Assembly: GCF_003725775.1 (NCBI RefSeq) | Contig: NZ_RJSG01000002.1 | Span: 186,001-250,000 of the forward strand | DNA length: 64,000 nucleotides | Direction: 5' to 3' | Origin: Nocardioides marmorisolisilvae | Lineage (GTDB): Bacteria > Actinomycetota > Actinomycetes > Propionibacteriales > Nocardioidaceae | Part shown: positions 11,808-46,302 of the stretch, piece after piece | Layout: the number at the start of each line of letters is the position of its first letter | How positions within the stretch are numbered: position 1 is the first letter of the stretch | The notes under the pieces: generated by a model | What the model was told of the DNA's origin: nothing | Seen by the model: the letters and a program-made list of their open reading frames with translations, nothing else | The model's database searches: none | Translations under genes and position numbers: made by a program

Positions 11808-11811
11808 AACT

Positions 11812-31524: not shown

Positions 31525-31602
31525 CCACCACCGGCGTAGTTCTTAGCGAAGTGGTCGGTTCTGTCCGCGAAACACAGCCATATCGCTCAGAACTGTGGGT
31601 CT

Positions 31603-32097: not shown

Positions 32098-32131
32098 GCC
32101 GTCATCAAACCACTCACGGCAGAATGTGGGA

Positions 32132-32824
32132 ATGCACTTCGAGGTTCTCCGTGCCGATGCGCAGCCGGGAGAGCCCTGGGCGGCGCTCGCGGATCGGAGC
32201 TGCCCCGAGGTCGGGCCGGTACTCGCCGAGGACCTCTCCGCGGAGCCGATGAAGTTCCGCACCGACCCCCAGCATCGGATCTCGGTGCGCCCGATGACCG
32301 TCGGCGATCTCGCGGACGTCACCCGCTGGGTCAACGAGCCGCACGTCGCGAAGTGGTGGGACGAGCACCGCACGCCCGAGCAGGTCGCGGCCTACTACGG
32401 CCCGGCGCTCCGGGGCGAAGAGCCGACCCGGTTGTGGGTCTGGGAGGTCAACGGGCGCTCCATCGGGTTCGGCCAGGACTACCGGATCTCCGACTACCCG
32501 GAGTACGCGCTGGTGTGCTCGCGCCCGGACGCGATCGGCTTCGACTACGCGATCGGCGAGGCCGCGTTCGTCGGCAAGGGGATCGGGACGGCGATCCTCT
32601 GGGTCTACCTGCGCGACATCGTCTGGCCGGCGTACCCGGGTGCGTCGGAGTTCTTCGCGGCCCCCGACCATCGCAACAAGGCCTCGCTCCGGGTGCTGGT
32701 GAAGCTCGGGTTCACCCCGGGCGTCTGGTTCGACGAGCCGGCTGACGGGGGCCGGGTCGACACGGTGGTCGGCCACTCGCTCGATGTGGCGCAGGTCATG
32801 GGTCTCAATCCGGTTACCCGGTAG
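32132..32824 (+). CDS. GNAT acetyltransferase, AAC(6')/IucB-like
   Basis: 230-residue enzyme. After a ~45-residue unrelated start it has RISVRPMTVGDLADVTRWVNEPHVAKWWDEH, LWVWEVNGRSIGFGQDYRI and GKGIGTAILWVYLRDI, the pattern of the Acetyltransf_8 group that includes aminoglycoside 6'-N-acetyltransferases and siderophore acetylases. The ATG at 32132 follows CAGAAT by 6 bases. Resistance activity cannot be inferred; many homologues are housekeeping enzymes of unknown substrate. Confidence 0.8.
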   Translation: MHFEVLRADAQPGEPWAALADRSCPEVGPVLAEDLSAEPMKFRTDPQHRISVRPMTVGDLADVTRWVNEPHVAKWWDEHRTPEQVAAYYGPALRGEEPTRLWVWEVNGRSIGFGQDYRISDYPEYALVCSRPDAIGFDYAIGEAAFVGKGIGTAILWVYLRDIVWPAYPGASEFFAAPDHRNKASLRVLVKLGFTPGVWFDEPADGGRVDTVVGHSLDVAQVMGLNPVTR

Positions 32825-32836
32825 TAACATCGAGGT

Positions 32837-33322
32837 ATGCCCAACGTCGCAGACCTCTACAAGACCACCACCACGCTGCCGATAGTCGGCCCGCTGGTCG
32901 GTGAGCGAGCGTTCTCGTTCCTGTTCGCCCAGAAGGCGCCGTACTTCGCGAGCATCCACCCGCGCTTCACCAAGGTCGAGCCGAACCACGCCGAGCTGGT
33001 GATCCCGAAGCGTCGTTCGGTGCAGAACCACATCGGCACCGTGCACGCGATCGCGCTGTGCAACGGCCTCGAGGCGGCGATGGGTGCCCTGGCCGAGTCG
33101 ACGATCCCGAAGAACAAGCGCTGGATCCCCAAGGGGATGGACATCTCCTACACGGCGAAGGCCACCACCGACATCACCTGCATCGCCGAGACCGACCCGG
33201 AGCAGTGGACCAGCGACAACCCCGACCTGCACGTCCGGGTCAAGGGTGTGCGGACCGACGGGGTCGTCGTGATCGAGGGCGTCATCAAGCTCTGGGTCAC
33301 CGAGAAGCCCAAGAAGGACTGA
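32837..33322 (+). CDS. Hotdog-fold thioesterase-like protein (DUF4442)
   Basis: 161-residue protein of the DUF4442 hotdog family (HPRFTKVEPNHAELVIPKRRSVQNHIGTVHAIALCNGLEAAMG). The IGTVHA segment corresponds to the catalytic helix region of acyl-CoA thioesterases. TAACAT (32825-32830) ends 6 bases before the ATG, a leaderless arrangement. Its stop is 2 bases from the convergent peptidase stop. Confidence 0.85.
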   Translation: MPNVADLYKTTTTLPIVGPLVGERAFSFLFAQKAPYFASIHPRFTKVEPNHAELVIPKRRSVQNHIGTVHAIALCNGLEAAMGALAESTIPKNKRWIPKGMDISYTAKATTDITCIAETDPEQWTSDNPDLHVRVKGVRTDGVVVIEGVIKLWVTEKPKKD

Positions 33323-33323
33323 C

Positions 33324-34661
33324 CTAGCCGTCGAAGTGCTGGGAGTCGGTCGTCGCATACGTCCACCGGAACCCGGCTGACGTCATCAGCTTCACCACCA
33401 GGCTGCTCCGGTACTTCCACGCGTACTTCCCGGCCTGCTTGTGCGCCCACCACTTCGTCGGCAACCAGCCGACGTGGGAGTGGAAGGGGTTCTCCCACGG
33501 GTTGATGTCGATCGACCGTCCGTAGGAGTGCGGCGACATCGTCCCAGGGTCGCCGGTCACGCCGCGGCAGTTGAAGGCCGAGGTGTTGTCGTGCTTCATC
33601 GACTGCAGGTCGTTGGCGCCCGGCGAGCTCGGGTTCCTGCCGAAGCGGTCGGGCAGGTACATCGAGCGGATGGGGACCTGAGCGTCGTACAGCTTGGTCA
33701 GGGCGACCTTGAACTTGCTGACCGCGGCGTCGCGGACCACCAGCTCGCCGCGGTGCCGGTACCCGTCGAACCCCCAGTAGTTGACGGTGACGTAGCGCAG
33801 GCTGCCGCGGCCGATCGGGCAGCCGGGGTGCCAGCTGCGCCCGAACATCCGCTTCCAGACGGTGTCGGAGATCAGGTGGACGGCGATGTTCGGGCCGTCC
33901 CCGGACGCCCGGTACTGCGCCAGCAGCGTGTGCGGTCGGGAGGCGCCGGACGGGAGCGTGACCGGCCGCAGCGGGGGACGGTTGTCGACCTTCCAGGTCG
34001 GCGACGTGTCGGATCTCCAGCCGGGACCGGATTCGGCGCGCAGCTGGTAGGAGGTGTCCCAGCGCGGCGAGATCGTCAGGTACGCCCGGCCTCCCGCGCT
34101 GGTGATGACCGACCCGAGCCGGGTCCACGGCTGGCCGCTCTTGTGGAAGTAGACGGCGACCCGGCCCTTCACGGCGTACCCGTCGGAGCCGAGCCAGAGC
34201 ACCGAGAGGTGCCCGCTCTGCTCGTCGACCACGCTGTCCGACCCGTGCAGGTGCACGTCGCTGGAGACCATGATCCCCTCGAGACTGACCGGGACGCTGG
34301 TGACCTGAAGGTCGCCGACGGAGATCCGGGCGCGCAGCTGCTGCGGCCCGGCGACCGGTACGACGCTGAGGCCGGCGGTCCCGTCCGAGGCGGTGACGCC
34401 GTCCGCGATCGTCGTCCAGGCTCCGCCGTCGCCCTGGCGCTGCAGGCTCACGCCCAGGCCGGACGTCACGCGCTGGTCGTCGTCCTGGAACGCCGCCTGC
34501 ACCGTCATGGTGCGTCCTATCCGGGCTGTGCCGGGCGCGGTGAGGACGAGCTGGGGATCGTCCGCCGAGGCGGCACCGGCCGGAGCGGCGGTCCCCAGGA
34601 GGCCCAGAGCGAGCAGGGTGACGACGAGGGGCGCGAGAACGCGCAGAGGATGCCCGAGCAC
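33324..34661 (-). CDS. Secreted D-Ala-D-Ala carboxypeptidase, M15 (VanY-type)
   Basis: 445-residue exported enzyme. Signal peptide about 1-31 (ends GAA-S). About 35-230 are Ig/beta-rich, cell-surface-like modules. The C-terminal M15 domain holds the zinc site: His378 and Asp385 in SPHSYGRSIDIN, and His442 in SQHF. It should trim D-alanine or cut peptidoglycan stems. GTG start with GGAGAAGG upstream. It stands next to a second carboxypeptidase gene on the same strand. Confidence 0.88.
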   Translation of the reverse strand: MLGHPLRVLAPLVVTLLALGLLGTAAPAGAASADDPQLVLTAPGTARIGRTMTVQAAFQDDDQRVTSGLGVSLQRQGDGGAWTTIADGVTASDGTAGLSVVPVAGPQQLRARISVGDLQVTSVPVSLEGIMVSSDVHLHGSDSVVDEQSGHLSVLWLGSDGYAVKGRVAVYFHKSGQPWTRLGSVITSAGGRAYLTISPRWDTSYQLRAESGPGWRSDTSPTWKVDNRPPLRPVTLPSGASRPHTLLAQYRASGDGPNIAVHLISDTVWKRMFGRSWHPGCPIGRGSLRYVTVNYWGFDGYRHRGELVVRDAAVSKFKVALTKLYDAQVPIRSMYLPDRFGRNPSSPGANDLQSMKHDNTSAFNCRGVTGDPGTMSPHSYGRSIDINPWENPFHSHVGWLPTKWWAHKQAGKYAWKYRSSLVVKLMTSAGFRWTYATTDSQHFDG

Positions 34662-34716
34662 GCCTTCTCCTACCCCGACGCGGCCCGCCTCAAGCGATCA
34701 CGGCCACGTCGGAGGG

Positions 34717-35610
34717 TCAGCGAGCCGCGTCGAGGATCAGCCGGGCGTCCCGGTACCGGGCATCGCCGCTGGCCGAGTGGAGCACCACGCCGACCAGGGT
34801 GCGCCCGCCGCGGGTGATGGCGAAGACCAGGCACGCGCCCGCAGGTGTGGTGGTCCCGGTCTTGACGCCGATGACGCCCCAGTACCGGCCGAGCAGCTGG
34901 TTGGTGTTCTCCCAGGTGTAGATCCGCCGGCCACCCGACGCCGTCCAGCCGGGCACGCTCGTCGTCCGGGTGCGCACGATCGCGGCGAACTGCTCGTTGC
35001 CCAACGCGTACGACGCCAGCCGGGCCAGCGAGCGCGGCGTAATGTGGTTGGTGCTCGTCGGTGCCAGACCGTCGAACGACCCGAACTGCGTTCGGCTCAG
35101 TCCGAGCTCGGCCGCCTTGGCGTTCATGCGGCTGATGAACTCGGCCGTGCGGGCAGTCCGGGTGCTCCCGTGGCCGAACCTGTCGGCCAGGGCGTAGGCC
35201 GCGTCGCTCCCCGACGGCAGCAGCAGGCCGTAGAGCAGCTGGCGGACCGTGAGGCTGTCGCCGGTGTGCAGGTGAGCGGTGCTGGCGTCCTTCCACACGG
35301 CGTACCGGTGGTAGACCGACTTGACCGGGATCCGTGCGTCGAGGTCGAGTCCCGGCGTCTCGAGCACGACGACGGCGGTCATGATCTTGGTGGTGCTGGC
35401 CATCGGGCGCTCGGTGTAGATGGCGCGTCCCATCAGCACGGATCCGTCGGCCTGGTCGATGAGGATCGCGCCCGCTGCCGTCACTCCGGCAGGAACCCGA
35501 GGGATGGGCGCGGTCTCCGCGACTCCCGGTGCGGGCGCCAGGAACGCCGAGGTCGCGACCAGCCCGACGGCGAGGGTCCGCGCCCAACTGCTGAACGCGC
35601 CCGATCGCAT
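34717..35610 (-). CDS. D-alanyl-D-alanine carboxypeptidase, S11 (DacA/DacC type)
   Basis: 297-residue penicillin-binding protein. Signal peptide about 1-33. Active-site motifs: S72-T-T-K75 (SxxK), S133-G-S135 in place of the usual SxN, and K250-T-G (KTG). The SGS variant keeps the motif geometry and occurs in other actinobacterial members. Lacks the long C-terminal beta domain and membrane helix of PBP5, so it is a free or weakly attached secreted form. The ATG at 35610 is chosen because it directly begins the signal peptide. Confidence 0.9.
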   Translation of the reverse strand: MRSGAFSSWARTLAVGLVATSAFLAPAPGVAETAPIPRVPAGVTAAGAILIDQADGSVLMGRAIYTERPMASTTKIMTAVVVLETPGLDLDARIPVKSVYHRYAVWKDASTAHLHTGDSLTVRQLLYGLLLPSGSDAAYALADRFGHGSTRTARTAEFISRMNAKAAELGLSRTQFGSFDGLAPTSTNHITPRSLARLASYALGNEQFAAIVRTRTTSVPGWTASGGRRIYTWENTNQLLGRYWGVIGVKTGTTTPAGACLVFAITRGGRTLVGVVLHSASGDARYRDARLILDAAR

Positions 35611-35726
35611 CACCCTGCGTACTCTGCCACCGCATCGAGGAGTTCGCTGGCGTGTGACGCAGCCCATGCGTTCATTCGTTCTGCGGTAGGAGGCGGCTGC
35701 GCCGGATTCTCGGAACACTTCTCCCC

Positions 35727-38720
35727 ATGAGCCCCGAGGGTCCCGAGTCGTCAACGCTGGCCAGGCTGGCGCGCTTCACCATCTCCCGGGCTCCCTGGAT
35801 GATCGGTGGCTGGCTGCTGTTCGTGATCGCCGTCAACGTGCAGGTGCCGCAGATCGAGTCGGTCGTGGCGAAGGACAGCACGCCGTTCGTGCCCGAGTCC
35901 GCGCCGTCGCTGCGCGCGGTCAAGGCGATGGACACCACCTTCGGCAACGGCAAGAGCCGCAGCTTCATCGTGCTGGTCGCCGCACGCGACGGCGGCCTGA
36001 CCGCCGCGGACCGTCAGTACGTCGTGAAGCTGGCCGACCGCCTGCGCGCCGACACCAAGCACGTCACCTACGTCCAGGACATCAGCTCGCCGACCCTGCG
36101 CAAGGCGCTGGAGAGCAAGGACGGTGAGGCGACGTACTTCCAGATCGGCCTCTCCGGCTACACCGGCGCTCCCACCTCGGTCGGTCAGGTCGAGGCGGTG
36201 CGCGACGACGCCGAGATCGGGAAGCCGGCCGGACTCGACGTGAAGGTCACCGGCGCCAGCGCGACCATCACCGACATGGTGGTCAACGTCGAGCACAGCA
36301 TCGTCACGATCACCGCCGTGACGCTGGTGATGATCGCGATCATCCTGATGCTGATCTACCGCTCCGTCGTCGTCACCGGGTTCATCCTCGGCGCCATCGG
36401 CGTCGCCCTGGCCGCGGCCCGCGGCACGGTCGCGTTCCTCGGCGACCACCACGTCTTCCACGTCTCGACCTTCACCGGCTCGTTCCTCACCGCGATCGTG
36501 CTCGGGGCGACCACCGACTATGCGATCTTCCTGATTAGCCGCTTCCACGAGGAGCGCCGCAAGGGCGTCGAACCCCGCGAGGCAGCGCGGGTCGCGGCCA
36601 GCCGGGTCTCGGCGGTGATCATCGGCTCGGCGCTGACCGTGATCCTGGCCAACGCCTGCCTGGCGCTCGCGCACGTCGGTCTGTTCCGCACCACCGGCCC
36701 GGCGATCGCGGTCAGCATCGTGCTGGCGCTCGGGATCTCGCTGACCCTGATCCCGCCGCTCATCGCGATCATGGGCACCCGCGGCCTGCTCGAGCCGCGC
36801 GAGCGCAACAGCGCCGAGGGCGGCTGGGCGCGCTGGGGCGAGCGGGTCGTCTCCCGGCCCGGTCTGGCGCTGGCCGGCGGGCTGATCCCGCTGGTCCTGC
36901 TCGCCGCGTTCCTGCCCGCGTTCAAGCCGAGCTACGACGAGCGCTCCGTGCAGCCGAAGGACACCGACAGCAACGACGGCTACGCGCTGATGGACGCCCA
37001 CTACCCGGTCAACGAGGCGCTCCCGGACTTCGTGCTGGTCACCGCGGACCACGACCTGCGCAACCCGAAGGACCTGGCCGCCCTCGAGCAGGCCTCGGCC
37101 AACGTCGCGCGGGTCACCGGTGTCGGTTCGGTGCGCGGCGTCACCCGCCCGACCGGTACGACGATCACCCAGGCCTCGGTCGGCTACCAGGCCGGCCTCA
37201 TCGGCGACCGGCTCGCCGATGCGAAGGACCAGCTCGCCGGGGGAGCGAAGGACGCCACCAAGCTGAGCGACGGTGCGGCCCAGCTCGCCGACGGCGCCGA
37301 CCAGCTGGCCAGCGGTGCGAGCTCGGCGGCTGACGGGGCCGACCGCGTGCTCGCCGGTGTCGAGTCCCTGCACGGTGGCCTGGAGAAGCTGGCCGCGGGC
37401 AGCGACGACGCCGTCGACGGCAGCACCCAGCTGCGCGCCGGGGCACAGGCGCTCGCCGACGGTCTCGCGACCGCGGTCGACCAGACCCAGCTCGCCGTCG
37501 ACGGCCTCGGGCTGGCGTACCAGGCGCTGCGCAAGAGCTTGACCTGCGGGTTGGACCCGTACTGCAAGGGCGCCCGCGACGGTATCCAGCAGATCTACAC
37601 CGGCGAGCGGGACCAGCTGATCCCCGGCCTGAAGAAGGCGGAGACCGGCGCCCGCAAGCTCGCCAACGGCACCGTCGACCTCCAGACCGGGCTGCGTCAG
37701 ATCCGCAGCGGACTCGGTTCCGCACGCGACGGCGCCGCCAGCCTGAAGGCCGGCCAGCAGACACTGGCCGACGGCCTGGACGACCTCGCCTCCGGCACGG
37801 ATCGCGTCGCCGGCGCGAGCGACCAGGTGGCCGGCGGCACCAAGCAGCTCACCGGCTCGGTCGCCCAGCTCCAGTCGGGTCTGGCGGCGGCCGCGGCGTA
37901 CCTGAAGTCGACCGCGGCGGCGACCAGGTCAACGGGTGGTGGCGGCTTCTACCTCCCGCCGAGCGCGCTGAAGGACGATCGGTTCGCGCTGTCCAGCGGC
38001 GCCTACCTGTCTCCGGACGGCAAGGTCGCTCGGCTCATCGTGCTGGGGGACACCAACGCCTTCGGCCATGCCGCGGCCGACCGCAGCGCGAAGATCTCGG
38101 CAGCGGTGCGCAGCGGCCTGAAGGGCACCGAGCTGGCCGACGCGAACGTCGCGATCACCGGCATGTCGGCCACGAACGCCGACATCCAGAAGCTGTCGAG
38201 CTCGGACTTCCGGTTGGTGGCGATCGTCGCGATGATCGCGGTCTTCCTGATCCTGCTGCTGCTGATCCGCAGCCTCGTGGCATCGGTCTTCCTGCTGGCC
38301 TCGGTGCTGCTCTCCTACGCGGCGACGATGGGCCTGGCGGTCCTGGCCTGGCAGATCATCGGCGGTACGCCGCTGGAGTGGACGGTCGCCTGCATCGCGT
38401 TCGTGCTGCTGGTCGCGGTCGGGGCCGACTACAACCTGCTGCTGATCAAGCGGATGCACGAGGAGTCGCCGGACGGCTCCCGGGCCGGCATCGCCCGGGC
38501 GGTCGCGCTCACCGGCGGGGTCATCACTGCCGCCGGGGTCATCTTCGCCACCAGCCTGTTCGCGATGATGAGCGGCTCGGTGACGACGTTGGTCCAGCTC
38601 GGCTTCACCGTCGGCATCGGTCTGCTCATCGACACCTTCGTGGTGCGCACGATGGTGGTGCCGGCGTTCGCGGCACTGGTCGGTCCGCGGCTGTGGTGGC
38701 CGTCCAAGGCCGAGGCCTAG
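35727..38720 (+). CDS. MMPL/RND-family lipid transporter
   Basis: 997-residue membrane protein with two RND halves. Helix 1 is about 24-45; a first exported loop follows; then five helices around 190-360 with GATTDYAIFLISRFHEE (the proton-relay Asp-Tyr pair); a second very large loop (about 410-830) containing repeated LxxGAxxLxxG-type segments likely to form coiled rods; and a second helix set with VGADYNLLLIKRMHEE. Such proteins export lipids or glycolipids. A cytoplasmic end is almost absent. It is divergent from the carboxypeptidase and convergent with marR. Confidence 0.92.
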   Translation: MSPEGPESSTLARLARFTISRAPWMIGGWLLFVIAVNVQVPQIESVVAKDSTPFVPESAPSLRAVKAMDTTFGNGKSRSFIVLVAARDGGLTAADRQYVVKLADRLRADTKHVTYVQDISSPTLRKALESKDGEATYFQIGLSGYTGAPTSVGQVEAVRDDAEIGKPAGLDVKVTGASATITDMVVNVEHSIVTITAVTLVMIAIILMLIYRSVVVTGFILGAIGVALAAARGTVAFLGDHHVFHVSTFTGSFLTAIVLGATTDYAIFLISRFHEERRKGVEPREAARVAASRVSAVIIGSALTVILANACLALAHVGLFRTTGPAIAVSIVLALGISLTLIPPLIAIMGTRGLLEPRERNSAEGGWARWGERVVSRPGLALAGGLIPLVLLAAFLPAFKPSYDERSVQPKDTDSNDGYALMDAHYPVNEALPDFVLVTADHDLRNPKDLAALEQASANVARVTGVGSVRGVTRPTGTTITQASVGYQAGLIGDRLADAKDQLAGGAKDATKLSDGAAQLADGADQLASGASSAADGADRVLAGVESLHGGLEKLAAGSDDAVDGSTQLRAGAQALADGLATAVDQTQLAVDGLGLAYQALRKSLTCGLDPYCKGARDGIQQIYTGERDQLIPGLKKAETGARKLANGTVDLQTGLRQIRSGLGSARDGAASLKAGQQTLADGLDDLASGTDRVAGASDQVAGGTKQLTGSVAQLQSGLAAAAAYLKSTAAATRSTGGGGFYLPPSALKDDRFALSSGAYLSPDGKVARLIVLGDTNAFGHAAADRSAKISAAVRSGLKGTELADANVAITGMSATNADIQKLSSSDFRLVAIVAMIAVFLILLLLIRSLVASVFLLASVLLSYAATMGLAVLAWQIIGGTPLEWTVACIAFVLLVAVGADYNLLLIKRMHEESPDGSRAGIARAVALTGGVITAAGVIFATSLFAMMSGSVTTLVQLGFTVGIGLLIDTFVVRTMVVPAFAALVGPRLWWPSKAEA

Positions 38721-39170
38721 CTACTCCTCCGCGAGGAGCTCCATCACACCCTGGAGCACCCGGTAGGTGGCATCGACGTCCCGGTCGCCGAACTTCTCGC
38801 GGACCAGGGCGTCGATCTCGATGATGTGGCTGTAGCCGCTGGAGGCGACCTTCCGGCCGTACTCGGTGAACATCACGATCTTGGCGCGCCCGTCGGCGGG
38901 GTCGGGGACCATCTCGACGATCCCGTGCGCGGCGAGGTCGCGGATCGCCTCGCCCATCGACTGCCGGGTGATCCCGGCGCGGTGTGCCATGTCGACGGCG
39001 CGGGCGCCTTCCGGGGGGAGCGTGGCGAAGACCGGGTTGTGCAGAGGCTGCAGCTCGGTGAAGCCGCGGGAGTGCGCGGTCGTGACCATGTCGTCGCGCA
39101 GGGCGCGCGCGGACTTCTCGGCGAGTGCGATCAGCGGCAAGAAATTCGGCCGCTCGAGACCTCTTGACAT
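38721..39170 (-). CDS. MarR-family transcriptional regulator of the glutathione operon
   Basis: 149-residue winged-helix regulator: FATLPPEGARAVDMAHRAGITRQSMGEAIRDLAAHGIVEMVPDPADGRAKIVMFTEYG contains the recognition helix and the DxRxK wing of MarR proteins. ATG at 39170; longer starts run into the divergent operon. The intergenic region contains an inverted repeat between the -35 and -10 of the gsh operon, so it most likely represses that operon and itself, and responds to a thiol-reactive or electrophilic signal (inference). Confidence 0.88.
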   Translation of the reverse strand: MSRGLERPNFLPLIALAEKSARALRDDMVTTAHSRGFTELQPLHNPVFATLPPEGARAVDMAHRAGITRQSMGEAIRDLAAHGIVEMVPDPADGRAKIVMFTEYGRKVASSGYSHIIEIDALVREKFGDRDVDATYRVLQGVMELLAEE

Positions 39171-39192
39171 TTGTAAGGCTGCCTTCCAATAT
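39164..39192 (+). promoter_or_regulatory. Promoter and MarR-type operator of the glutathione operon
   Basis: Consensus -35 TTGACA (39164-39169), 17-base spacer, -10 CAATAT (39187-39192). The spacer carries TTGTAAGG-CTG-CCTTCCAA (39171-39189), an inverted repeat with one mismatch that overlaps the -10. The start codon (39226) has AGGAGC before it. The divergent marR start lies within this same element, so one bound dimer could control both directions. Confidence 0.7.
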
Positions 39193-39225
39193 TTGACAGG
39201 TAACCTTACTTTATCAGGAGCAGTC

Positions 39226-40188
39226 ATGAACCGCACGCCGATTCTCGAAGCAGTCGCCCCGCTGTTCGCCCGGACCGGTCGCAGCACCCGCGTCGCGATC
39301 GAGCAGGAGCTCTTCGCGATGGACGTCTTCGGCGGCGCCAGCGTCGCCCCGAAGCGCGTGCTCGAGGCCGTCGCTGGTCGCGACTACGCGCGCTGGGTGA
39401 CGTTCGAGCCGGGCGGCCAGGTCGAGCTGAGCCTGCCGCCGGCCGAGACCCCGGCGGCGGCAGCCGCCCAGCTGGCCCGGGTTACCGACGCCCTGGCGGA
39501 CGACCTGATGGCTCACGGCATCGCGATCTGCGCGCGGCCGGTGCGGGGCCAGGACCCGAACACCCCGCGCCACCTGCTCTCGCCCCGGTACGACGCGATG
39601 GAGCGCCACCTCGACAGCATCGGCGCCGCCGGTCGCCGGATGATGCGCTCGACCGCCTCGACCCAGGTCTGCCTGGACTGGTGGGCCGGGCGCGAGGGCC
39701 TCGAGCAGTGGCGGGTGCTGAACCTGGCCGGCCCGTTCCTCGCCGCCGCCACCGCGAAGGCCACCGGACCGCAGAGCCGGCTGGCCACCTGGCTCGAGGT
39801 CGACCCGTCGCGGACTGCGTTCGACGACCGGCTGCTGCACGGCCGCGACCCGGTCGCGGCGTACGCGGACTTCGCCGCCGGCGCCCGCGTCTTCGTCGAC
39901 GGGGGAGTCGCCGACCACCTGACCACCCTGTTCCCGCCGGTGCGCCCGCGCGGTTCGTACCTGGAGGTCCGCTTCCCCGACGCCCGCCCGGCCGCCCAGG
40001 TCGAGGCGCTGGTCGAAGGCTTCGCAGGGCTCCTGTACGACGACGAGCGCCGTCGCAGCGCCCTGGCCGTTCTCGCTGGCGAGCAGGATCGGCTCGCCGA
40101 GCACTGGGCGGCGGCCGCCGTCGGGACGCTCGACCTGGAGCTGGGGGCCTGGCTGCTCGGGGGCGACCGCCGGGCGGTGGCGGCATGA
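39226..40188 (+). CDS. Glutamate-cysteine ligase, GCS2/EgtA type
   Basis: 320-residue ATP-dependent carboxylate-amine ligase. TRVAIEQELFAMDV (about 20-33) is the glutamate/metal-binding opening of the GCS2 family, followed by MRSTASTQVCLDW, and DPSRTAFDD and RPRGSYLEVRFPDARP near the end, where the adenine and Mg sites lie. It is shorter than EgtA (~420) but has the same order. Overlaps a gshB gene by four bases, which strongly suggests it makes gamma-glutamylcysteine for glutathione rather than for ergothioneine. Confidence 0.85.
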   Translation: MNRTPILEAVAPLFARTGRSTRVAIEQELFAMDVFGGASVAPKRVLEAVAGRDYARWVTFEPGGQVELSLPPAETPAAAAAQLARVTDALADDLMAHGIAICARPVRGQDPNTPRHLLSPRYDAMERHLDSIGAAGRRMMRSTASTQVCLDWWAGREGLEQWRVLNLAGPFLAAATAKATGPQSRLATWLEVDPSRTAFDDRLLHGRDPVAAYADFAAGARVFVDGGVADHLTTLFPPVRPRGSYLEVRFPDARPAAQVEALVEGFAGLLYDDERRRSALAVLAGEQDRLAEHWAAAAVGTLDLELGAWLLGGDRRAVAA

Positions 40189-41180
40189 GCGTCCTCGTCG
40201 TGGCCGACCCGATGGCGAGCCTCGACCCGCAGATCGACGCCAGCGTCGGCCTGATGGACGCGGCTCAGCGCCTCGGCCACCAGGTCTGGATCTGCACTCC
40301 CGAAGACCTGTCCGCCCGTGACGGCAGGGTCCGCGCCCGGGCGCAGCGGATCACGTTGGCGCCCCGGGTCCGCGGCGGTGACCACCGCTGGCTCGTCGAG
40401 CCCACCTGGTACGCCGTCAACGCGAGCACCACCCTCGATGTCGTCGCCGAGGTCGAGCTGGTGCTGCTCCGGATCGACCCGCCGGTCGAGGGCCGCTACC
40501 TGCACACGACGTACTTGCTTGATCTGGTCGAGGCCGGCGGCGTCCGGGTCGTCAACCGCCCCGAGGGCATCCGCGCCTTCCACGAGAAGCTGGGGGCACT
40601 GCTCCTTCCCGATCTGTGCCCGCCGACGCTCGTGAGCACCGATGCCGCCGAGCTGCGCGCTTTCGTCGCCGAGCACGGTGCCTGCGTGGTCAAGCCGGTC
40701 GACGGCTTCGCCGGCCTGGACGTCTGGCTGGTCCGCGACGATCGGGGCGCCCGGGCCCTGCTCGAGTCCGCGACCCGCACCGGGACCCGCCAGGTCATCG
40801 CCCAGCGCTACCTCGAGCAGGTCGACGGCGGCAACAAGAGGCTGTTCCTGCTCGACGGCGAGATCGTCGGTGCGGTGCTGCGACGCCCGAGCGACGACGA
40901 CTTCCGGATCGGCCCGCCGTGCGCGCCTGCCGACGTCGACGAGCAGGACCAGCGCATCGCCGCAGCGCTCGCGCCGCTTCTCGCCCGTCACGGCCTGGCC
41001 CTGGCCGGGCTCGACGTCATCGACGGCCGCCTGATCGAGGTCAACGTGACCTGTCCGGGCGGGATGCACAAGACGGATGCCCTGCTGGGCACCGACCTCT
41101 CCGGCGTGATCATGCGCCGGCTCACCCACCACCACGAAAACACCCTCCTGAAGGAGTTCCACCCATGTCTGACACCATGA
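40185..41180 (+). CDS. gshB: Glutathione synthetase, GshB type
   Basis: 331-residue ATP-grasp ligase similar along its length to proteobacterial GshB: VADPMASLDPQIDAS (start), LLRIDPPVEGRYLHTTYLLD, VVNRPEGIRAFHEKL, VVKPVDGFAGLDVWLV, AQRYLEQVDGGNKRLFLLDGE and GLDVIDGRLIEVNVTCPGG, which carries the Mg-binding Asn/Glu and substrate loop. It adds glycine to gamma-glutamylcysteine. Its last 16 bases overlap the MAPEG start. Unusual in this phylum, where mycothiol is the normal thiol. Confidence 0.93.
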   Translation: MSVLVVADPMASLDPQIDASVGLMDAAQRLGHQVWICTPEDLSARDGRVRARAQRITLAPRVRGGDHRWLVEPTWYAVNASTTLDVVAEVELVLLRIDPPVEGRYLHTTYLLDLVEAGGVRVVNRPEGIRAFHEKLGALLLPDLCPPTLVSTDAAELRAFVAEHGACVVKPVDGFAGLDVWLVRDDRGARALLESATRTGTRQVIAQRYLEQVDGGNKRLFLLDGEIVGAVLRRPSDDDFRIGPPCAPADVDEQDQRIAAALAPLLARHGLALAGLDVIDGRLIEVNVTCPGGMHKTDALLGTDLSGVIMRRLTHHHENTLLKEFHPCLTP

Positions 41181-41563
41181 TCATCTGCATCGCCCTGATG
41201 GGCGCCCTGGTCTTCGTTCTCGGCGCCAACGTGACCCGGCACCGCGCGATGCGCGGCAAGTCCGGCGGCCCCCAGATGTCGACCGACCCGACCGACCGGC
41301 TGTTCATCGCCCAGCGCGCCCACGGCAACGCCACCGAGTACGTCCCCACCCTGATCGGCCTGCTGATCGTCTGCTCGACGCTGACCAGCGGCACCTGGTT
41401 GAACGTCGTCGCGATCGTGGCGACCGCTGCCCGCTACGTGCACGCCTTCGGGATGCTCAGCTCGAAGAGTCTCGCCGAGCACGGACCGGTCCGTGACTCG
41501 GGCGCGATGTTCACCTACCTCTCCGGCCTGGCGCTGGCCGTCACCGCGATCGCGTCGCTCTGA
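41165..41563 (+). CDS. MAPEG-family membrane protein
   Basis: 132-residue protein with about four helices. ALVFVLGANVTRHRA, FIAQRAHGNATEYVPTLIGL and ARYVHAFGMLSS are the conserved MAPEG blocks (Arg, His, Asn, Glu line the glutathione pocket in human members). MAPEG proteins are glutathione transferases or peroxidases of the membrane. AAGGAG 8 bases upstream supports the ATG. Its place directly after gshB suggests it uses the glutathione made by the operon to detoxify hydrophobic compounds. Confidence 0.92.
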   Translation: MSDTMIICIALMGALVFVLGANVTRHRAMRGKSGGPQMSTDPTDRLFIAQRAHGNATEYVPTLIGLLIVCSTLTSGTWLNVVAIVATAARYVHAFGMLSSKSLAEHGPVRDSGAMFTYLSGLALAVTAIASL

Positions 41564-41565
41564 CC

Positions 41566-42258
41566 ATGACCAGGAAGCCCGTGGTGGGGGTGGTCGGTCA
41601 CGGGTACCGGGTCCCGAAGCCCTTCGGCGACCTGCCCGTGACCGGCACCCCGCCCACCTATGTGGACGCGATCACCGCGGCCGGCGGGCGACCCCTGATC
41701 CTGCCGCCGCGCCACGCGCCGGAGCTGCTCGACCTCGTCGACGCCCTGGTGCTCACCGGAGGGGGAGACGTGGACCCCGCCCGGTACGGCGGCAGCGGCC
41801 CGGCCGAGGATGTCGACCCGCAACGCGACGAGGAGGAGATCGCCGTCGTGCACGCCGCAGCCGCGGACCGGGTGCCGCTGCTCGGGGTCTGCCGCGGGAT
41901 GCAGATCCTCGCGGTCGCCTTCGGAGGCACCCTGCGGGGCGGGCTCGAGCACCGCCTGCCCGTCGACGGCCACGAGGTCCGCACAGCTCCGGGCTCGCTG
42001 ATCGCCGACCTCCTCGGGCCGGTTGCGCAGACCTCGGCGTTGCACCGACAGGCGGTCCTCGACCCAGGACCGTCCTGGACGGCGACCGCCTGGTCGCACG
42101 ACGGCACCACCGAGGCCCTCGAACCGACGACCACCGGCTGGTCCGTCCTGGGGGTCCAGTGGCATCCCGAGCTCCACGCCCACGAGCTCCTCACCGACCC
42201 GACCGGACCGGCGCTCTTCGGCTGGCTGGTCGGACAGGCCCGGGTCCTCACCGCGTGA
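41566..42258 (+). CDS. Gamma-glutamyl hydrolase-like class I glutamine amidotransferase (peptidase C26, PuuD type)
   Basis: 230-residue triad amidotransferase. The nucleophile elbow is GVCRGMQIL; oxyanion DALVLTGGGDVDPARYG; the catalytic His/Glu are in VQWHPELHA. PuuD-type enzymes cleave gamma-glutamyl bonds. Starts 3 bases after the MAPEG stop, so it is the fourth gene of the operon. It could recycle glutathione conjugates or gamma-glutamyl peptides (inference from context). Confidence 0.88.
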   Translation: MTRKPVVGVVGHGYRVPKPFGDLPVTGTPPTYVDAITAAGGRPLILPPRHAPELLDLVDALVLTGGGDVDPARYGGSGPAEDVDPQRDEEEIAVVHAAAADRVPLLGVCRGMQILAVAFGGTLRGGLEHRLPVDGHEVRTAPGSLIADLLGPVAQTSALHRQAVLDPGPSWTATAWSHDGTTEALEPTTTGWSVLGVQWHPELHAHELLTDPTGPALFGWLVGQARVLTA

Positions 42259-42325
42259 GGACACCGTTTGTGGCGCCGACGTTCGGGCACATCTGAGGGG
42301 AGTGACCGAACGACGGAGGCGATGG

Positions 42326-42784
42326 ATGAAGCCCGGAAACGTCGTCGACCCGGTGGTCGACGCTGCCAAGCACCCCCTCAAGACGACCGCGTGGGCCGTT
42401 GGCCTGATGCGTGGCATCGCAGCCTCGGTGATCCGGGTCGCCGCAGGGGAGAAGGGTCCGGTCATCCCCGGGTACCTCCCGGGTCCGCTGGCCGCGCCCG
42501 TCGAGGAGAACGTCGCCCACGAGGACGTCGTGCACTACGACCTGATCGACCCGCCCGAGCAGGCGACCGAGTTGGCGATCGACGTCGAGCCGGCGCCCGA
42601 GCGCGAACCGGAGCCGCTGCGGGAGTCGTTCGCCAACGAGCCGACCGCGGTCAGCCGTGACTCCGCCCACGGGGGTGGCGGGAACGACGAGCAGATCGAC
42701 GACTGGTACGGCGAGACCGACGACGCAGACCTGCCGGAGACGGTCGTCGAGATGCTCGAGCTCGGCGACGAGAAGCCGCGCTAG
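42326..42784 (+). CDS. Hypothetical acidic protein
   Basis: 152-residue protein with a basic/hydrophobic first third (KTTAWAVGLMRGIAASVIRVAAGEKGPVIPGYLPGP, split here) and a very acidic, Pro/Glu-rich remainder, probably disordered. GGAGG 6 bases upstream sets the ATG at 42326. No family recognised. Its stop overlaps that of the convergent L,D-transpeptidase in a shared CTAG. Confidence 0.7.
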   Translation: MKPGNVVDPVVDAAKHPLKTTAWAVGLMRGIAASVIRVAAGEKGPVIPGYLPGPLAAPVEENVAHEDVVHYDLIDPPEQATELAIDVEPAPEREPEPLRESFANEPTAVSRDSAHGGGGNDEQIDDWYGETDDADLPETVVEMLELGDEKPR

Positions 42785-43482
42785 CGGACCACGACCACCT
42801 TGGTGCCCGGGTCCGCGAAGTACCAGATGTGCTTCGCGGTCTCGTTGCTCACCCGGGTGCAGCCGTGGCTGGTCATCATGTTGGTGCCGAGCATCCAGTC
42901 CGGGTGGATCTGCTTGCCGGTGCCGACGTACGTGGGCACCCGGTGGATGCCGACGCCGCACGCGATGATCCGCGTGAAGTAGTCCAGCTGCAGCTTCAGG
43001 TCGTAGGACCGGTTGTGCAGGATCTTGGCTGGCCGGCCGCACTTGGACCCGCTGTGGTAGGTGCCGACGCTGACGATCTTCGGGTTGTCGATCATGCCGC
43101 CCTGGGCAGCGATGTCGCCACTCTCGCGGACCAGCCAGATCCAGTTCTGCTTCTGGCTGATCACGATCCGCCGGCCGGTGCCGGAGTTCGACGGGACCGG
43201 ACGGTTGTCGCAGTGGACCGAGGTCGACGTGAGCAGCTTGGCCTTGGTCGCGTCGGTCAGCGTGCCGGTCTGGGAGAGCCAGTTCGCCGCCTGGAAGCGG
43301 ATGATCCCGGCAGTGGTGTGGTCGTTCGGCGAACCGGTCGTCGGGCCGGCGTCGCAGCCGAAGTGGTTCAACCGCCACTGCGTGTGCCGGAACCAGTCCG
43401 AGGCGTTGGACGGTGCGACCGTCGAGGTGGCGAGAACGAACGCGCCGACAATGGCGAGACACCCGAGAACTGCGCGGCGCAT
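42781..43482 (-). CDS. L,D-transpeptidase (YkuD) with peptidoglycan-binding domain
   Basis: 233-residue secreted enzyme. Signal peptide about 1-27. A PG_binding_1-like helical module (about 32-85: WRLNHFGCDAGPTTG ... AGIIRFQAANWL). Catalytic YkuD domain about 105-233, with His180 and the motif S205-H-G-C208-x-R. It forms 3-3 peptidoglycan cross-links or attaches proteins. AGAGGAAG precedes the ATG. Confidence 0.92.
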   Translation of the reverse strand: MRRAVLGCLAIVGAFVLATSTVAPSNASDWFRHTQWRLNHFGCDAGPTTGSPNDHTTAGIIRFQAANWLSQTGTLTDATKAKLLTSTSVHCDNRPVPSNSGTGRRIVISQKQNWIWLVRESGDIAAQGGMIDNPKIVSVGTYHSGSKCGRPAKILHNRSYDLKLQLDYFTRIIACGVGIHRVPTYVGTGKQIHPDWMLGTNMMTSHGCTRVSNETAKHIWYFADPGTKVVVVR

Positions 43483-43529
43483 GGACTTCCTCTGATCGTT
43501 GAGCGGGGGATCAGCGTACCTGGGAGACG

Positions 43530-43566
43530 GCCGAGCCCGCCGCGGACTTTCCACGGCGGGCTCGGC
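43530..43566. terminator. Hairpin between the transpeptidase promoter region and protease relic
   Basis: GCCGAGCCCGCCG (43530-43542) and GGCGGGCTCGGC-type right arm (43554-43566) form a perfect 13-bp stem with an 11-base loop. It lies 15 bases past the stop of the leftward protease relic and before the leftward transpeptidase gene, so it probably ends leftward transcription. Confidence 0.65.
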
Positions 43567-43580
43567 TGTTCGGTTGATCC

Positions 43581-43752
43581 CTAGTGACCCGCGAGGCCGT
43601 GGATGTACGCCGCAGCGTTCGGCGTACCCCAGCCCGTGGTCATGTCGTAACCGGAAAGGGTCGGCCACCCGGGGACGGCGTCCGGTGCCACCGAGCCGTC
43701 CGGGAGGTAGTCCCACATCCAGTTGCTGTCCAGGACGCCGCTGGCCGCGGTG
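43581..43752 (-). pseudogene. C-terminal relic of a secreted serine protease (S8/S53-like)
   Basis: An open stretch of about 57 codons with strong coding bias ends in TAG at 43581-43583. It reads VLDSNWMWDYLPDG..., then GYDMTTGWGTPNAAAYIHGL and GH. The D-M-T-T-G-W-G-T-P-N motif is the hallmark of the C-terminal end of sedolisin/subtilisin-like secreted peptidases, just after the catalytic Ser region. The rest is missing; the DUF2238-like gene abuts it. No start codon or active site is present. Confidence 0.7.
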
Positions 43753-43758
43753 CTCCGG

Positions 43759-44340
43759 TCAGGTTCTGGCGAGGCGCCTGGCGACGACGAGCCCGGCCAC
43801 GGACGCTCCGAGCGTTCCCAGCGTCAGGTCACCGAGGGTGTCCTCGTACGCGGTGTCCAGCTCGGTCCCGTGTCGGATGAACGTGTACCACTCACCGAGC
43901 TCCCAGCCGATCGCGAGCACCGCGCCGAGTCCGGTGACCAGGAGTGCCAGCGCCCAGGTGGGGCGCACCGAGCGCCCGATGAGCAGCCCGATGCCGCTGA
44001 GCAGGAAGAACCAGTTCACCAAGTGGTTCAGGTCGTCCCACCAGCCGATGGCGTCGTACAGGTCGGCGGAGTTGCCGCTCACGTCGATGAGGAAGGGCAG
44101 CATGATCAGCGAGAACGCCCCGTACGGCGGCGCCTCGGACTGCCGCCGGCGCCTGGAAGCCACCCACCACAACGCGGGCGCGATCAGCATCAGCAGTGGA
44201 TAGCTGATCAGGCGTGCTCCGAACGCTTTGTCGGCGAAGCGGTCGATGCCCGGCCACCACTCCGCGACCGCCAGCTGGACGACGGTCAGGACGAGGATCG
44301 TGATCGGGACCGCGAGCAGCACCGGGCGGCGGGTGGTCAC
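43759..44340 (-). CDS. DUF2238/YjdF-like membrane protein
   Basis: 193-residue protein with about five to six hydrophobic helices and the order seen in YjdF/DUF2238 proteins: a conserved DLYDAIGWWDDLNHLVNWFFLLSG block, GWELGEWYTF, and DTLGDLTLGTLGASVAGL near the end. Several acidic and aromatic residues lie at the membrane face. GTG start at 44340. Function unknown. It ends next to the protease relic, suggesting a past deletion at that junction. Confidence 0.75.
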   Translation of the reverse strand: MTTRRPVLLAVPITILVLTVVQLAVAEWWPGIDRFADKAFGARLISYPLLMLIAPALWWVASRRRRQSEAPPYGAFSLIMLPFLIDVSGNSADLYDAIGWWDDLNHLVNWFFLLSGIGLLIGRSVRPTWALALLVTGLGAVLAIGWELGEWYTFIRHGTELDTAYEDTLGDLTLGTLGASVAGLVVARRLART

Positions 44341-44369
44341 CGGCCGATCATTCCGGTCGGCGGCACCTC

Positions 44370-44672
44370 TCACGACTTGGGTGAGTCGTCGACCTTGATG
44401 TCGAACTTGACCTTGCCGCCGTCGACGGAGGTCACCGTGACGGTCAGCCCGTAGGTCTTGCCCTCGGCCTTGAGGGTGCAGCGCGCGGTGGCGCCGACCT
44501 TGCCCTTCAGGTCCTTGGGGCAGTCGACGGAGTCGGGTGCCTGGCCGACCGACTTCGTCAGACCGGACTTCACCTGCTTCTCCAGGTCGTTGGCGGGGAC
44601 CGACTTGGTGCAACCGGTGACGGCGACGGTGAGACCGGCAGCGAGGGCCACGGCGGTGAGGCGACGGGTCAT
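44370..44672 (-). CDS. DUF4333 lipoprotein
   Basis: 100-residue lipoprotein. Signal peptide with lipobox VTGC (Cys about residue 21). The mature part SVPANDLEKQVKSGLTKSVGQAPDSVDCPKDLKGKVGATARCTL matches DUF4333, with two cysteines likely forming a disulfide. Anchored outside the membrane. CAGGAG precedes the ATG. Followed 29 bases later on the same strand by the DUF2238-like gene. Confidence 0.85.
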   Translation of the reverse strand: MTRRLTAVALAAGLTVAVTGCTKSVPANDLEKQVKSGLTKSVGQAPDSVDCPKDLKGKVGATARCTLKAEGKTYGLTVTVTSVDGGKVKFDIKVDDSPKS

Positions 44673-44811
44673 GACGAGCTCCTGGGAGGGTAGGCGTCGC
44701 CCGGGCTGCCCGAGCGCACCCGGACAACGTGCCAGCCCCGGAGCCGGTTCGTCACGGCCATCGGGCAGAGATGCCGGAATGGACTAGCCCAAGCCGTACT
44801 CTTGTGCGGCT

Positions 44812-46302
44812 ATGTCTGAGTCCCGCACGTATGAGGTCCGCACCTACGGGTGCCAGATGAACGTCCACGACTCCGAGCGCCTCTCCGGCCTGCTCGAGGG
44901 CGCGGGCTACCTGGCCGTCCCCGAGGGCGAGCAGGCCGACGTGGTCGTCTTCAACACCTGCGCGGTGCGCGAGAACGCGGACAACAAGCTCTACGGCAAC
45001 CTCGGGCACCTCGCGCCGATCAAGGCGAAGACACCCGGCATGCAGATCGCGGTCGGCGGCTGCCTGGCGCAGAAGGACCGCAGCACGATCACCCAGAAGG
45101 CGCCCTGGGTCGACGTCGTCTTCGGCACCCACAACATCGGCTCGCTGCCGGTGCTGCTCGAGCGTGCCCGCGTCGCCGAGGAGGCCCAGGTCGAGATCCT
45201 CGAGTCCCTCGAGGTCTTCCCGTCGACCCTGCCGACCAAGCGCGAGTCGGCGTACGCCGCGTGGGTCTCGGTCAGCGTCGGCTGCAACAACACCTGCACG
45301 TTCTGCATCGTCCCGGCGCTGCGCGGCAAGGAGAAGGACCGCCGGCCTGGCGAGATCCTCGCCGAGATCGAGGCGCTGGTCGCCGAGGGCGTCACCGAGG
45401 TGACCCTGCTCGGCCAGAACGTGAACACCTACGGCGTCGAGTTCGGCGACAAGCTCGCGTTCGGCAAGCTGCTCCGGGCCTGCGGGCAGATCGAGGGCCT
45501 CGAGCGAGTCCGGTTCACCTCGCCGCACCCGTCCTCGTTCACCGACGACGTGATCGCCGCGATGGCCGAGACCCCGAACGTGATGCACCAGCTGCACATG
45601 CCGCTTCAGTCCGGCTCGGACAAGGTGCTCCGCGACATGCGGCGCTCCTACCGGGCCGAGCGCTTCCTCGGGATCATCGACCGGGTCCGCGCCGCGATGC
45701 CGGACGCGGCGATCAGCACCGACATCATCGTCGGCTTCCCGGGGGAGACCGAGGAGGACTTCCAGGGCACCCTGGACGTCGTCAGGGCCGCCCGTTTCGC
45801 GAACGCGTTCACCTTCCAGTACTCCAAGCGCCCCGGTACGCCGGCCGCGGACCTGCCCGACCAGATCGACCCGAAGGTCGTCAACGAGCGCTACCAGCGG
45901 CTGCAGGCCCTGGTGCAGGAGATCTCCTGGGAGGAGAACCGGAAGTTCGAGGGCCAGGTCGTCGAGCTGATGGTGGCCGAGGGCGAGGGCCGCAAGGACA
46001 CCGAGACGCACCGGCTCTCCGGCCGTGCGCGCGACAACCGGTTGGTGCACTTCACGCCGATCGCCCCGGACGGTGGTGAGCTCGAGGTCCGCCCTGGCGA
46101 CGTGGTCGAGGCCCGGGTCACCTACGGCTCGCCGACGTACTTGATCGCCGACGGCCCGGTGCTGTCGGTGCGGCGTACGCGGGCCGGTGACGCCTGGGAG
46201 GCCAGGGTTTCGACGGGCTCAACCAGCAAGGCTGGTGTCGGGCTCGGGATGCCAGGCGTCGGCGTACCGGCTCCGCTGCCGGACGCCCCGGTCTGCGGCT
46301 GA
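44812..46302 (+). CDS. miaB: tRNA methylthiotransferase MiaB
   Basis: 496-residue radical-SAM enzyme that makes ms2i6A at tRNA position 37. N-terminal cluster Cys14, Cys50 and Cys84; radical SAM cluster Cys158-xxx-Cys162-xx-Cys165 (GCNNTCTFC); TRAM domain about 370-450. The last ~35 residues are a Gly/Pro/Val tail, partly encoded by an interspersed repeat (46207-46225), and are not part of the family core. TACTCT (44797-44802) is a likely -10 box. It pairs functionally with miaA downstream. Confidence 0.97.
46207..46225 (-). repeat. Short interspersed repeat (GTCGAAAC element), copy 2
   Basis: GTTTCGACGGGCTCAACCA, the reverse complement of the type at 54018-54037. It lies inside the last part of miaB and encodes the VSTGSTS segment of its tail, so the repeat has been accommodated in a coding region. 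Confidence 0.6.

What the first reader, a model, noticed from the sequence alone, without database searches (positions are those of the whole stretch)
38721..42258. Glutathione operon with MAPEG and gamma-glutamyl hydrolase in an actinobacterium
A MarR regulator is divergent from four tightly packed genes: a GCS2-type glutamate-cysteine ligase, a clear GshB, a MAPEG protein (a family named for glutathione metabolism) and a C26 gamma-glutamyl hydrolase. Actinobacteria normally use mycothiol; glutathione genes are known only sporadically (for example in isoprene-degrading Rhodococcus). A self-contained make-use-recycle module with its own regulator looks like a detoxification cassette and may have been acquired from a Gram-negative donor, although base composition now matches the host.
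Basis: partly seen in the sequence, partly recalled or inferred. Interest (0 to 1): 0.75.

Follow-up and report, generated by a model that had tools for sequence, protein, structure and literature searches.

The report
Self-regulated glutathione-type thiol detoxification cassette
A soil actinobacterium that also carries the genes for its usual protective thiol, mycothiol, has a small self-regulated gene set that appears to make glutathione, or a close relative of it, for a membrane enzyme that uses such thiols; the enzyme for the last step has an unusual active site, so the exact product is an open question.

Summary
The five genes are real and exactly where reported. A MarR regulator faces a short GCS2 ligase, a GshB-type ATP-grasp ligase, a MAPEG membrane protein and a C26 hydrolase. 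The order MarR / GCS2-GshB-MAPEG, with a conserved double operator, recurs in Nocardioidaceae and Kribbella. In a sample of 394 class genomes the same 10 carry both this GshB clade and this MAPEG. All 18 cassette genomes checked encode MshC, so the thiol would be made besides mycothiol. "Clear GshB" needs a caveat: all 49 cassette GshBs differ from all 14 canonical GshBs compared, including a styrene-plasmid one from Gordonia, at three active-site motifs, one a four-residue loop deletion. GCS2 is its own clade beside EgtA, with fixed changes too. Best reading: an inducible cassette making a gamma-Glu-Cys tripeptide thiol for its MAPEG enzyme, with C26 (elsewhere an MFS transporter) handling products. 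Glutathione or an analogue: sequence cannot settle it. A recent Gram-negative donor is not supported. It is not an isoprene/styrene cluster; Nocardioides sp. Root240 carries this cassette and, separately, a canonical gshB near a styrene monooxygenase gene. The listed results of my open-access paper searches showed no description of it.

The parts
38721..39170 (-). MarR-family regulator (149 aa), divergent from the operon
   Evidence: Pfam MarR_2 25.5 bits, below cut-off 27; an orthologue in the same place in 35 of 35 group-1 loci; the window protein has no cysteine (sequence)
39164..39192 (+). inferred promoter of the operon: TTGACA, 17 bases, CAATAT; the TTGACA overlaps the MarR start codon
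   Evidence: sequence; TTGACA in 32 of 32 aligned intergenic regions, but its conservation may partly reflect the MarR Met-Ser-Arg start; promoter activity not shown
39173..39187 (.). operator box 1, GTAAGG-N3-CCTTCC (imperfect dyad)
   Evidence: two AGG-N3-CCT cores 21-23 bp apart in 32 of 32 intergenic regions
39195..39209 (.). operator box 2, GACAGG-N3-CCTTAC
   Evidence: ends in CCTTAC in 32 of 32; the only match of GWMAGGNNNCCTTAC in the own genome; the double-operator pattern also occurs once
39226..40188 (+). short GCS2-type ligase (320 aa), predicted first ligase (gamma-Glu-Cys)
   Evidence: Pfam GCS2; AF2 model pLDDT 87.5, best Foldseek hit plant glutamate-cysteine ligase 2gwc, E 5e-14; cassette ligases one clade beside EgtA, 100/99
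40185..41180 (+). GshB-type ATP-grasp ligase (331 aa), predicted second ligase, with altered catalytic loop
   Evidence: Pfam GSH-S_N and GSH-S_ATP; motif comparison
41165..41563 (+). MAPEG integral membrane protein (132 aa), predicted thiol transferase or peroxidase
   Evidence: Pfam MAPEG; R51, H53, N55 and E58 in 49 of 49, the pattern R74-H76-N78-E81 of MGST1; AF2 model with four helices, mean pLDDT 71.5; the top 26 Foldseek hits are MGST2, LTC4S or mPGES-1, at E 0.1-0.4
41566..42258 (+). Peptidase_C26 class-I amidotransferase-like gamma-glutamyl hydrolase (230 aa)
   Evidence: Pfam C26 163 bits; Cys109, His200 and Glu202 invariant in 6 of 6 aligned (catalytic role recalled); found at this place in 13 of 35 group-1 loci

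Best explanation
This is a self-regulated thiol cassette. The MarR protein sits on two dyad operators over the shared promoter region and is released by a small-molecule ligand (inferred). The short GCS2 ligase then joins glutamate through its gamma-carboxyl to cysteine, and the GshB-type ligase adds a third residue, giving glutathione or a close analogue (inferred from families). The MAPEG protein uses this thiol in the membrane to conjugate lipophilic electrophiles or reduce lipid peroxides (inferred from its conserved thiol-site residues and from studied MAPEG enzymes). The C26 enzyme cuts the gamma-glutamyl bond of the conjugate or of surplus thiol (inferred); in another actinobacterial lineage an MFS transporter gene follows MAPEG instead. 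The cassette is separate from the host's mycothiol pathway. Shown here: gene content, order, co-occurrence, conserved operators, retained catalytic residues, presence of MshC. Not shown: any enzyme activity, the thiol itself, the inducer.
For: GshB-MAPEG coupling: MAPEG follows gshB in 38 of 38 actinobacterial loci of the genome-contig scan, and 0 of 9 Myxococcota-type loci have a MAPEG match; the same 10 of 394 class genomes have both. Regulation: double operator in 32 of 32 intergenic regions, unique in the own genome. Catalysis: GshB keeps R219, R233, R241, D277, E285, N287 in 49 of 49; the E. coli counterparts of R219, D277, E285 and N287 (R210, D273, E281, N283) are described near the gamma-phosphate or at Mg (PMC10979984, passages). 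GCS2 keeps EPGGQ-E, R121-Y122, Q147, W189, D193, R196-T197, H231, FPPVRPR, E247, R249 in at least 41 of 43 and its model folds like plant GCL. MAPEG thiol-site residues 49 of 49. Product handling: C26 in 13 of 35 group-1 loci; MFS gene after MAPEG in 5 of 5 second-group loci tested, of 13. No EgtA over cut-off in the own genome, where the cassette ligase is the best EgtA-model match.
Against: No experiment shows a thiol. GshB has N217 for Asp208 and lacks the R-x-N-[LM]-x-x-G loop; GCS2 has Arg141 and Gln161 where EgtA has Cys and Arg. None of the 18 cassette genomes has a gene over the glutathione reductase TIGR01421 cut-off, so a recycling reductase is not identified. C26 was not found in 22 of 35 group-1 loci (two of these, L066 and L071, end too soon to tell), so it is not essential, and it is not the PuuD equivalog (83 against 266 bits). 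The MAPEG TM4 arginine (R110) is present in 43 of 49, not all. The MAPEG model has mean pLDDT 71.5 and no Foldseek hit at E<=0.001; a profile search of the PDB by sequence found no MAPEG entry.
Confidence: 0.68

Rival explanations
1. The product is exactly glutathione. The GshB differences are neutral drift of a lineage that still joins gamma-Glu-Cys and glycine. (A narrower form of the best explanation.)
For: NCBIfam PRK05246 passed; catalytic Mg and phosphate residues kept; MAPEG has the R-H-N-E residues that act on GSH in MGST1; E. coli GshB is the best PDB match.
Against: Three fixed motif changes in 49 of 49 against 0 of 14; 8 more distant GshB relatives also keep the R-x-N-x-x-x-G loop. 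Nocardioides sp. Root240 carries both a canonical gshB near a styrene monooxygenase gene and the cassette gshB. TIGR01380 cut-off missed.
Confidence: 0.4
2. The product is a glutathione analogue: a gamma-Glu-Cys tripeptide with another third residue, made by a re-shaped GshB and used by a matched MAPEG. (The other form of the best explanation.)
For: GNKR for GD[KR]R, DFRI with a 4-residue deletion for R-x-N-[LM]-x-x-G, N[VI]T[CS]xG[GA] for N[VI]T[SC]PT, all 49 of 49 against 0 of 14, and Lys at the E292 position; exclusive pairing with one MAPEG clade; both enzyme types in Root240.
Against: The changes do not identify an acceptor; Asp208 lies near the phosphate and ribose rather than the acceptor; MAPEG thiol residues look standard.
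Confidence: 0.28
3. A gamma-glutamylation route for an amine or amino acid (Puu-like): GCS2 and the ATP-grasp ligase load, and C26 unloads, a non-thiol substrate.
For: C26 is distantly PuuD-like; GCS2 has Arg141 and Gln161 where EgtA has Cys and Arg.
Against: MAPEG, the constant partner, is a thiol-enzyme family with its thiol-site residues invariant; C26 was not found in 22 of 35 group-1 loci; no amine-oxidising domain among the 10 flanking proteins scanned, two of which had no Pfam hit.
Confidence: 0.08
4. A substrate-specific catabolic module as in isoprene or styrene degraders.
For: Known actinobacterial glutathione clusters serve such pathways (PMC7355492, PMC8552685, PMC7657509, passages).
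Against: No monooxygenase, GST, CoA transferase or dehydrogenase domain among the five genes or the 12 other proteins around them that were scanned, 3 of which had no Pfam hit; the flanks are the recA-to-miaB backbone; the Gordonia styrene-plasmid ligase and GshB fall in other clades.
Confidence: 0.08
5. A recent acquisition from a Gram-negative donor.
For: Sporadic distribution: 10 of 394 class genomes.
Against: Best non-actinobacterial GshB 35-40% (Myxococcota-type); best listed Gram-negative plasmid record 36.1% (40 of 163 records listed, all 163 under 60%); one actinobacterial clade; GC3 near that of two neighbours. A search across Pseudomonadota genomes could not be run.
Confidence: 0.04

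Closest known systems
gshA/gshB of the styrene plasmid of Gordonia rubripertincta CWB2, and the isoprene clusters of Rhodococcus AD45 and Nocardioides WS12
   Same: Actinobacterial genes for a glutamate-cysteine ligase and GshB, with a MarR gene in CWB2 (annotation) and WS12 (passages)
   Different: CWB2 and WS12 carry GSTs, a monooxygenase and a CoA transferase; no MAPEG match in the 24.7 kb CWB2 stretch; the CWB2 GshB has canonical motifs; the CWB2 ligase groups with EgtA proteins. No AD45 or WS12 sequence was compared.
Canonical bacterial GshB (E. coli 1gsa)
   Same: Both Pfam domains; catalytic Arg210, Asp273, Glu281 and Asn283 equivalents kept
   Different: D208 to N, R-x-N-x-x-x-G loop lost, N[VI]TSPT changed, Lys at the E292 position
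EgtA, the gamma-Glu-Cys ligase of ergothioneine synthesis
   Same: Best NCBIfam model of the window ligase (134 bits); shared active-site motifs
   Different: Far below the cut-off of 370.8; shorter; separate clade; Arg141 and Gln161 where EgtA has Cys (13 of 14) and Arg (14 of 14)
MAPEG glutathione transferases (MGST1, MGST2, LTC4S; cyanobacterial Sll1147)
   Same: Fold and R-H-N-E pattern; Sll1147 protects against lipid peroxidation (PMC6798054, passages)
   Different: Here encoded in the operon that would make its own thiol, in bacteria with mycothiol genes; cognate thiol unproven
PuuD / Peptidase C26
   Same: Fold family and Cys-His-Glu
   Different: Not the PuuD equivalog (83 against 266 bits); substrate unknown

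Membership tests
GshB glutathione synthase | GSH-S_N and GSH-S_ATP domains | tested here: met
   113.0 and 144.2 bits, over cut-off
GshB glutathione synthase | curated equivalog cut-offs | tested here: inconclusive
   PRK05246 276.8 against 272 met; TIGR01380 271.5 against 299 not met
GshB glutathione synthase | Mg- and phosphate-site residues (E. coli R210, D273, E281, N283) | tested here: met
   R219, D277, E285, N287 in 49 of 49; Asp208, near the phosphate, is Asn in 49 of 49
GshB glutathione synthase | GD[KR]R, R-x-N-[LM]-x-x-G loop and N[VI]T[SC]PT motifs (taken from the 14 canonical sequences compared) | tested here: not met
   0 of 49 cassette against 14 of 14 canonical for each
GshB glutathione synthase | joins gamma-Glu-Cys and glycine | not testable with these tools
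   needs an enzyme assay
GCS2 gamma-glutamyl ligases | Pfam GCS2 and GCL fold | tested here: met
   68.4 bits; 2gwc TMq 0.80, E 5e-14
EgtA | TIGR03444 cut-off 370.8 | tested here: not met
   134 bits
MAPEG | Pfam MAPEG and four-helix fold | tested here: met
   64.1 bits; four helices, top 26 Foldseek hits MAPEG, though at E 0.1-0.4
MAPEG with thiol-dependent catalysis | Arg (MGST1 R74), Asn (N78) and TM4 Arg (R130) | tested here: met
   R51 and N55 49 of 49; R110 in the window, 43 of 49 overall; residue roles from PMC5554250 passages
PuuD | NCBIfam PRK11366 cut-off | tested here: not met
   83.2 against 266
Isoprene/styrene glutathione clusters | monooxygenase and GSTs beside gshB | tested here: not met
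   no such domain among the five genes or the 12 other proteins scanned around them, 3 of which had no Pfam hit

The most novel reading that the evidence does not exclude
The cassette makes a thiol not yet described: a gamma-glutamyl-cysteinyl tripeptide with a third residue other than glycine, built by a GshB subfamily with a re-shaped active site and used by its own MAPEG transferase. It would be a further low-molecular-weight thiol in actinobacteria beside mycothiol, ergothioneine and glutathione.
Probability: 0.28. Interest if true: 0.88.

Novelty: new variant of a known kind. Interest (0 to 1): 0.6.

Why it matters
Actinobacteria are the textbook mycothiol users, and glutathione there is known mainly from a few catabolic clusters. 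A self-regulated cassette found across Nocardioidaceae, Kribbella and, in a second form, Frankia and relatives would mean that inducible glutathione-type chemistry is an accessory trait of soil actinobacteria. The exclusive GshB-MAPEG pairing points to a transferase with its own dedicated thiol supply. The uniform change of the GshB active site makes the identity of the thiol a direct, cheap test by mass spectrometry.

Tried and rejected
Gram-negative donor: rejected as a recent event; a Pseudomonadota-wide search was not possible, so an ancient origin stays open. A phylum-wide sample (396 genomes, profile A1, E<=1e-30) gave 7 hits: the own genome at 577 bits and six distant ones at 120-154 bits.

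Vertical inheritance only: doubtful. Window GshB is 70% identical to G028 (another genus) and to G008 (same genus), 69% to G056 (another family), but 63% and 60% to same-genus G012 and G006. MiaB follows kinship better: 85, 83 and 82% for G012, G008 and G006, 77% for the f3 genomes listed, G056 not among them. Unequal rates are not excluded. Position: of 12 same-genus miaB-upstream stretches the cassette is next to miaB in G008 and about 14-16 kb away in G006, and absent from 10. MMPL as part of the cassette: rejected, since it stands near miaB without the cassette in G019, G007 and G016. Larger regulon: not found, one operator match in the genome at zero mismatches.

EgtA supplying gamma-Glu-Cys where the cassette lacks GCS2: 5 of 5 such genomes have EgtA over cut-off against 3 of 13 with GCS2, but those five are all from one family, so the contrast may be lineage. 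Glutathione reductase: none over the TIGR01421 cut-off in 18; other reductase models were not tried. Two other GCS2-family hits in the own genome were not properly classified: for one (272 bits) I sent a wrong reading frame, which matched nothing; it scores 19 bits with the EgtA model. The first GCS2 trees had rows read on the wrong strand (L116; then L113, L116 and L121); only one search is used, and there EgtA as one clade is not rejected (p-AU 0.236).

Papers: two works on glutathione in Actinobacteria, Johnson et al. 2009 and the review by Lienkamp et al. 2020, were asked for and are not held. So "undescribed" rests on what searches listed: 20 of 25, 20 of 138, 20 of 39, 20 of 226, 15 of 45 and 8 of 54 papers.
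Full report
Observation. All five genes lie at the stated coordinates, with Pfam support for the four operon genes and sub-threshold support for the MarR. The host genome is 3.83 Mb, window at G000:C4:186001-250000. Equal contig lengths link its genus-mate handles to N. pocheonensis (G008, L064), Marmoricola sp. URHB0036 (G006, L082) and a Propionibacteriales MAG (G012, L075), so the host is most likely a Nocardioidaceae member (my inference).

Recurrence. A genome-contig scan with a 10-member GshB alignment gave 47 loci. It used two peptide patterns, so it is not an unbiased census. Of these, 38 are actinobacterial and 9 Myxococcota-type. MAPEG follows gshB on the same strand in 38 of 38: within 30 bases or overlapping in 36, 67 bases away in L058 and 664 in L053; L071 ends inside or just after MAPEG. 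There is no MAPEG match in the 9 others. Group 1 (Nocardioidaceae and Kribbella): 35 loci counting the window, L026, L027 and L029; MarR, GCS2 and MAPEG in 35 of 35; C26 in 13 of 35, one of them (L070) with an internal deletion. Two of the 22 without C26 end within 150 bases of MAPEG. A Nocardioidaceae exception is L100 (G417): order GshB-MAPEG-GCS2-C26, no MarR match. Seven of the 13 have GCS2, all 13 MAPEG. An MFS gene follows MAPEG in 5 of 5 tested by Pfam; L079 and L080 showed no such open frame.

Co-occurrence. In 394 class genomes, the GshB search at E<=1e-60 and the MAPEG profile search at E<=1e-5 each hit 10 genomes, the same 10. The GshB threshold selects this clade and G028's styrene-type copy; a more distant GshB without MAPEG would not show.

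Regulation. Between marR and gcs2 there are two AGG-N3-CCT cores 21-23 bp apart in 32 of 32 regions aligned, about two helical turns. In the own genome the double operator and the box pattern GWMAGGNNNCCTTAC each occur once, here. The window MarR has no cysteine, so a ligand rather than a thiol switch is likelier (inference).

GshB. The protein keeps R219, R233, R241, D277, E285 and N287 (49 of 49). E. coli E281, N283 and D273 bind Mg, and R210 and D208 lie near the gamma-phosphate and ribose (PMC10979984, passages read). Three motifs separate 49 cassette GshBs (35 group 1, 13 second group, L100) from 14 canonical ones without exception: GNKR for GD[KR]R; DFRI with four residues fewer for R-x-N-[LM]-x-x-G; N[VI]T[CS]xG[GA] for N[VI]T[SC]PT. 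The sets were drawn by gene linkage and tree, not by motif. The canonical set is Gordonia L102, Root240 L033, nine Myxococcota-type, Legionella L108, Comamonadaceae L109 and Tistrella L110. Eight more distant GshB relatives also keep the loop. That E. coli residues 226-241 form a flexible active-site loop is recalled, from no call. Nocardioides sp. Root240 (G028) holds both types, the canonical one near a styrene monooxygenase gene and an integrase gene.

GCS2. The AF2 model (pLDDT 87.5) matches plant GCL best. Cassette ligases form one clade, 100/99, next to actinobacterial EgtA; the Gordonia and Root240 styrene-type ligases form another clade among EgtA proteins. Position 141 is Arg in 42 of 43 against Cys in 13 of 14 EgtA; 161 is Gln in 42 of 43 against Arg in 14 of 14. 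The own genome has no EgtA over cut-off.

MAPEG. R51, H53, N55 and E58 are in 49 of 49, Y59 in 48, the TM4 arginine R110 in 43. MGST1 has R74-H76-N78-E81, with loss of activity in N78 and R130 mutants (PMC5554250, passages). The top 26 Foldseek hits are MGST2, LTC4S or mPGES-1, at E 0.1-0.4, none at E<=0.001. A cyanobacterial MAPEG protects against lipid peroxidation (PMC6798054, passages).

Host thiols. MshC is over cut-off in 18 of 18 cassette genomes. No gene is over the TIGR01421 cut-off in 18.

Setting. The flanks hold recA, GNAT, DUF4442, carboxypeptidases, MMPL, an L,D-transpeptidase and miaB: backbone, with no recognisable thiol gene among the 12 proteins scanned around the cassette, 3 of which had no Pfam hit (miaB named from sequence). 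The cassette is present or absent in this region among genus-mates. GC is 0.720 in the cassette and 0.702 in the window.

Literature. Passages read: PMC8552685, PMC7355492, PMC6798054, PMC10979984, PMC5554250, PMC7657509. The papers listed (part of the matches each time) include none whose title or abstract start names a gshB-MAPEG cassette; only listings were seen for the rest.

Verdict. A real, conserved, self-regulated thiol cassette; glutathione or an analogue as product; not a recent Gram-negative import.

Noticed in passing
L033 (G028:C13, Nocardioides sp. Root240) 6516-14002: Styrene monooxygenase-like gene, canonical gshB, divergent EgtA-like GCS2 and a phage-type integrase close together: a likely mobile styrene/glutathione island resembling Gordonia plasmid pGCWB2.
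   Followed up: partly
L073 (NZ_JAAGLV010000017.1): Record titled Streptomyces sp. SID13031, but its GshB and GCS2 sit inside the Kribbella clade, and its genome (G043) is coded in the same family and genus (f3, g16) as G046, G048 and G056, whose GshBs also lie there; probably a mislabelled record.
   Followed up: partly
L070 7378-7683: C26 gene of a Kribbella strain with a large internal deletion, suggesting ongoing loss of the hydrolase in Kribbella.
   Followed up: partly
L098 (G352:C106) near 8804-9212: MAPEG matches lie in two frames, so a frameshift or a sequence error is possible.
   Followed up: no
L014, L034, L035 and L146-L151: A further GshB-like family in actinobacterial genomes, distant from the cassette GshB but keeping GD-x-R and the R-x-N-x-x-x-GG loop; role unknown.
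   Followed up: no
window 42326-42784 (+): A 152-aa protein just after the cassette with no Pfam or NCBIfam hit; a weak relative (40% identity) stands beside miaB in G021, so probably not part of the cassette.
   Followed up: partly
window 29928-46302: The stretch between recA and miaB differs in gene content among genus-mates (cassette, MMPL and others come and go), like an integration hot spot.
   Followed up: partly
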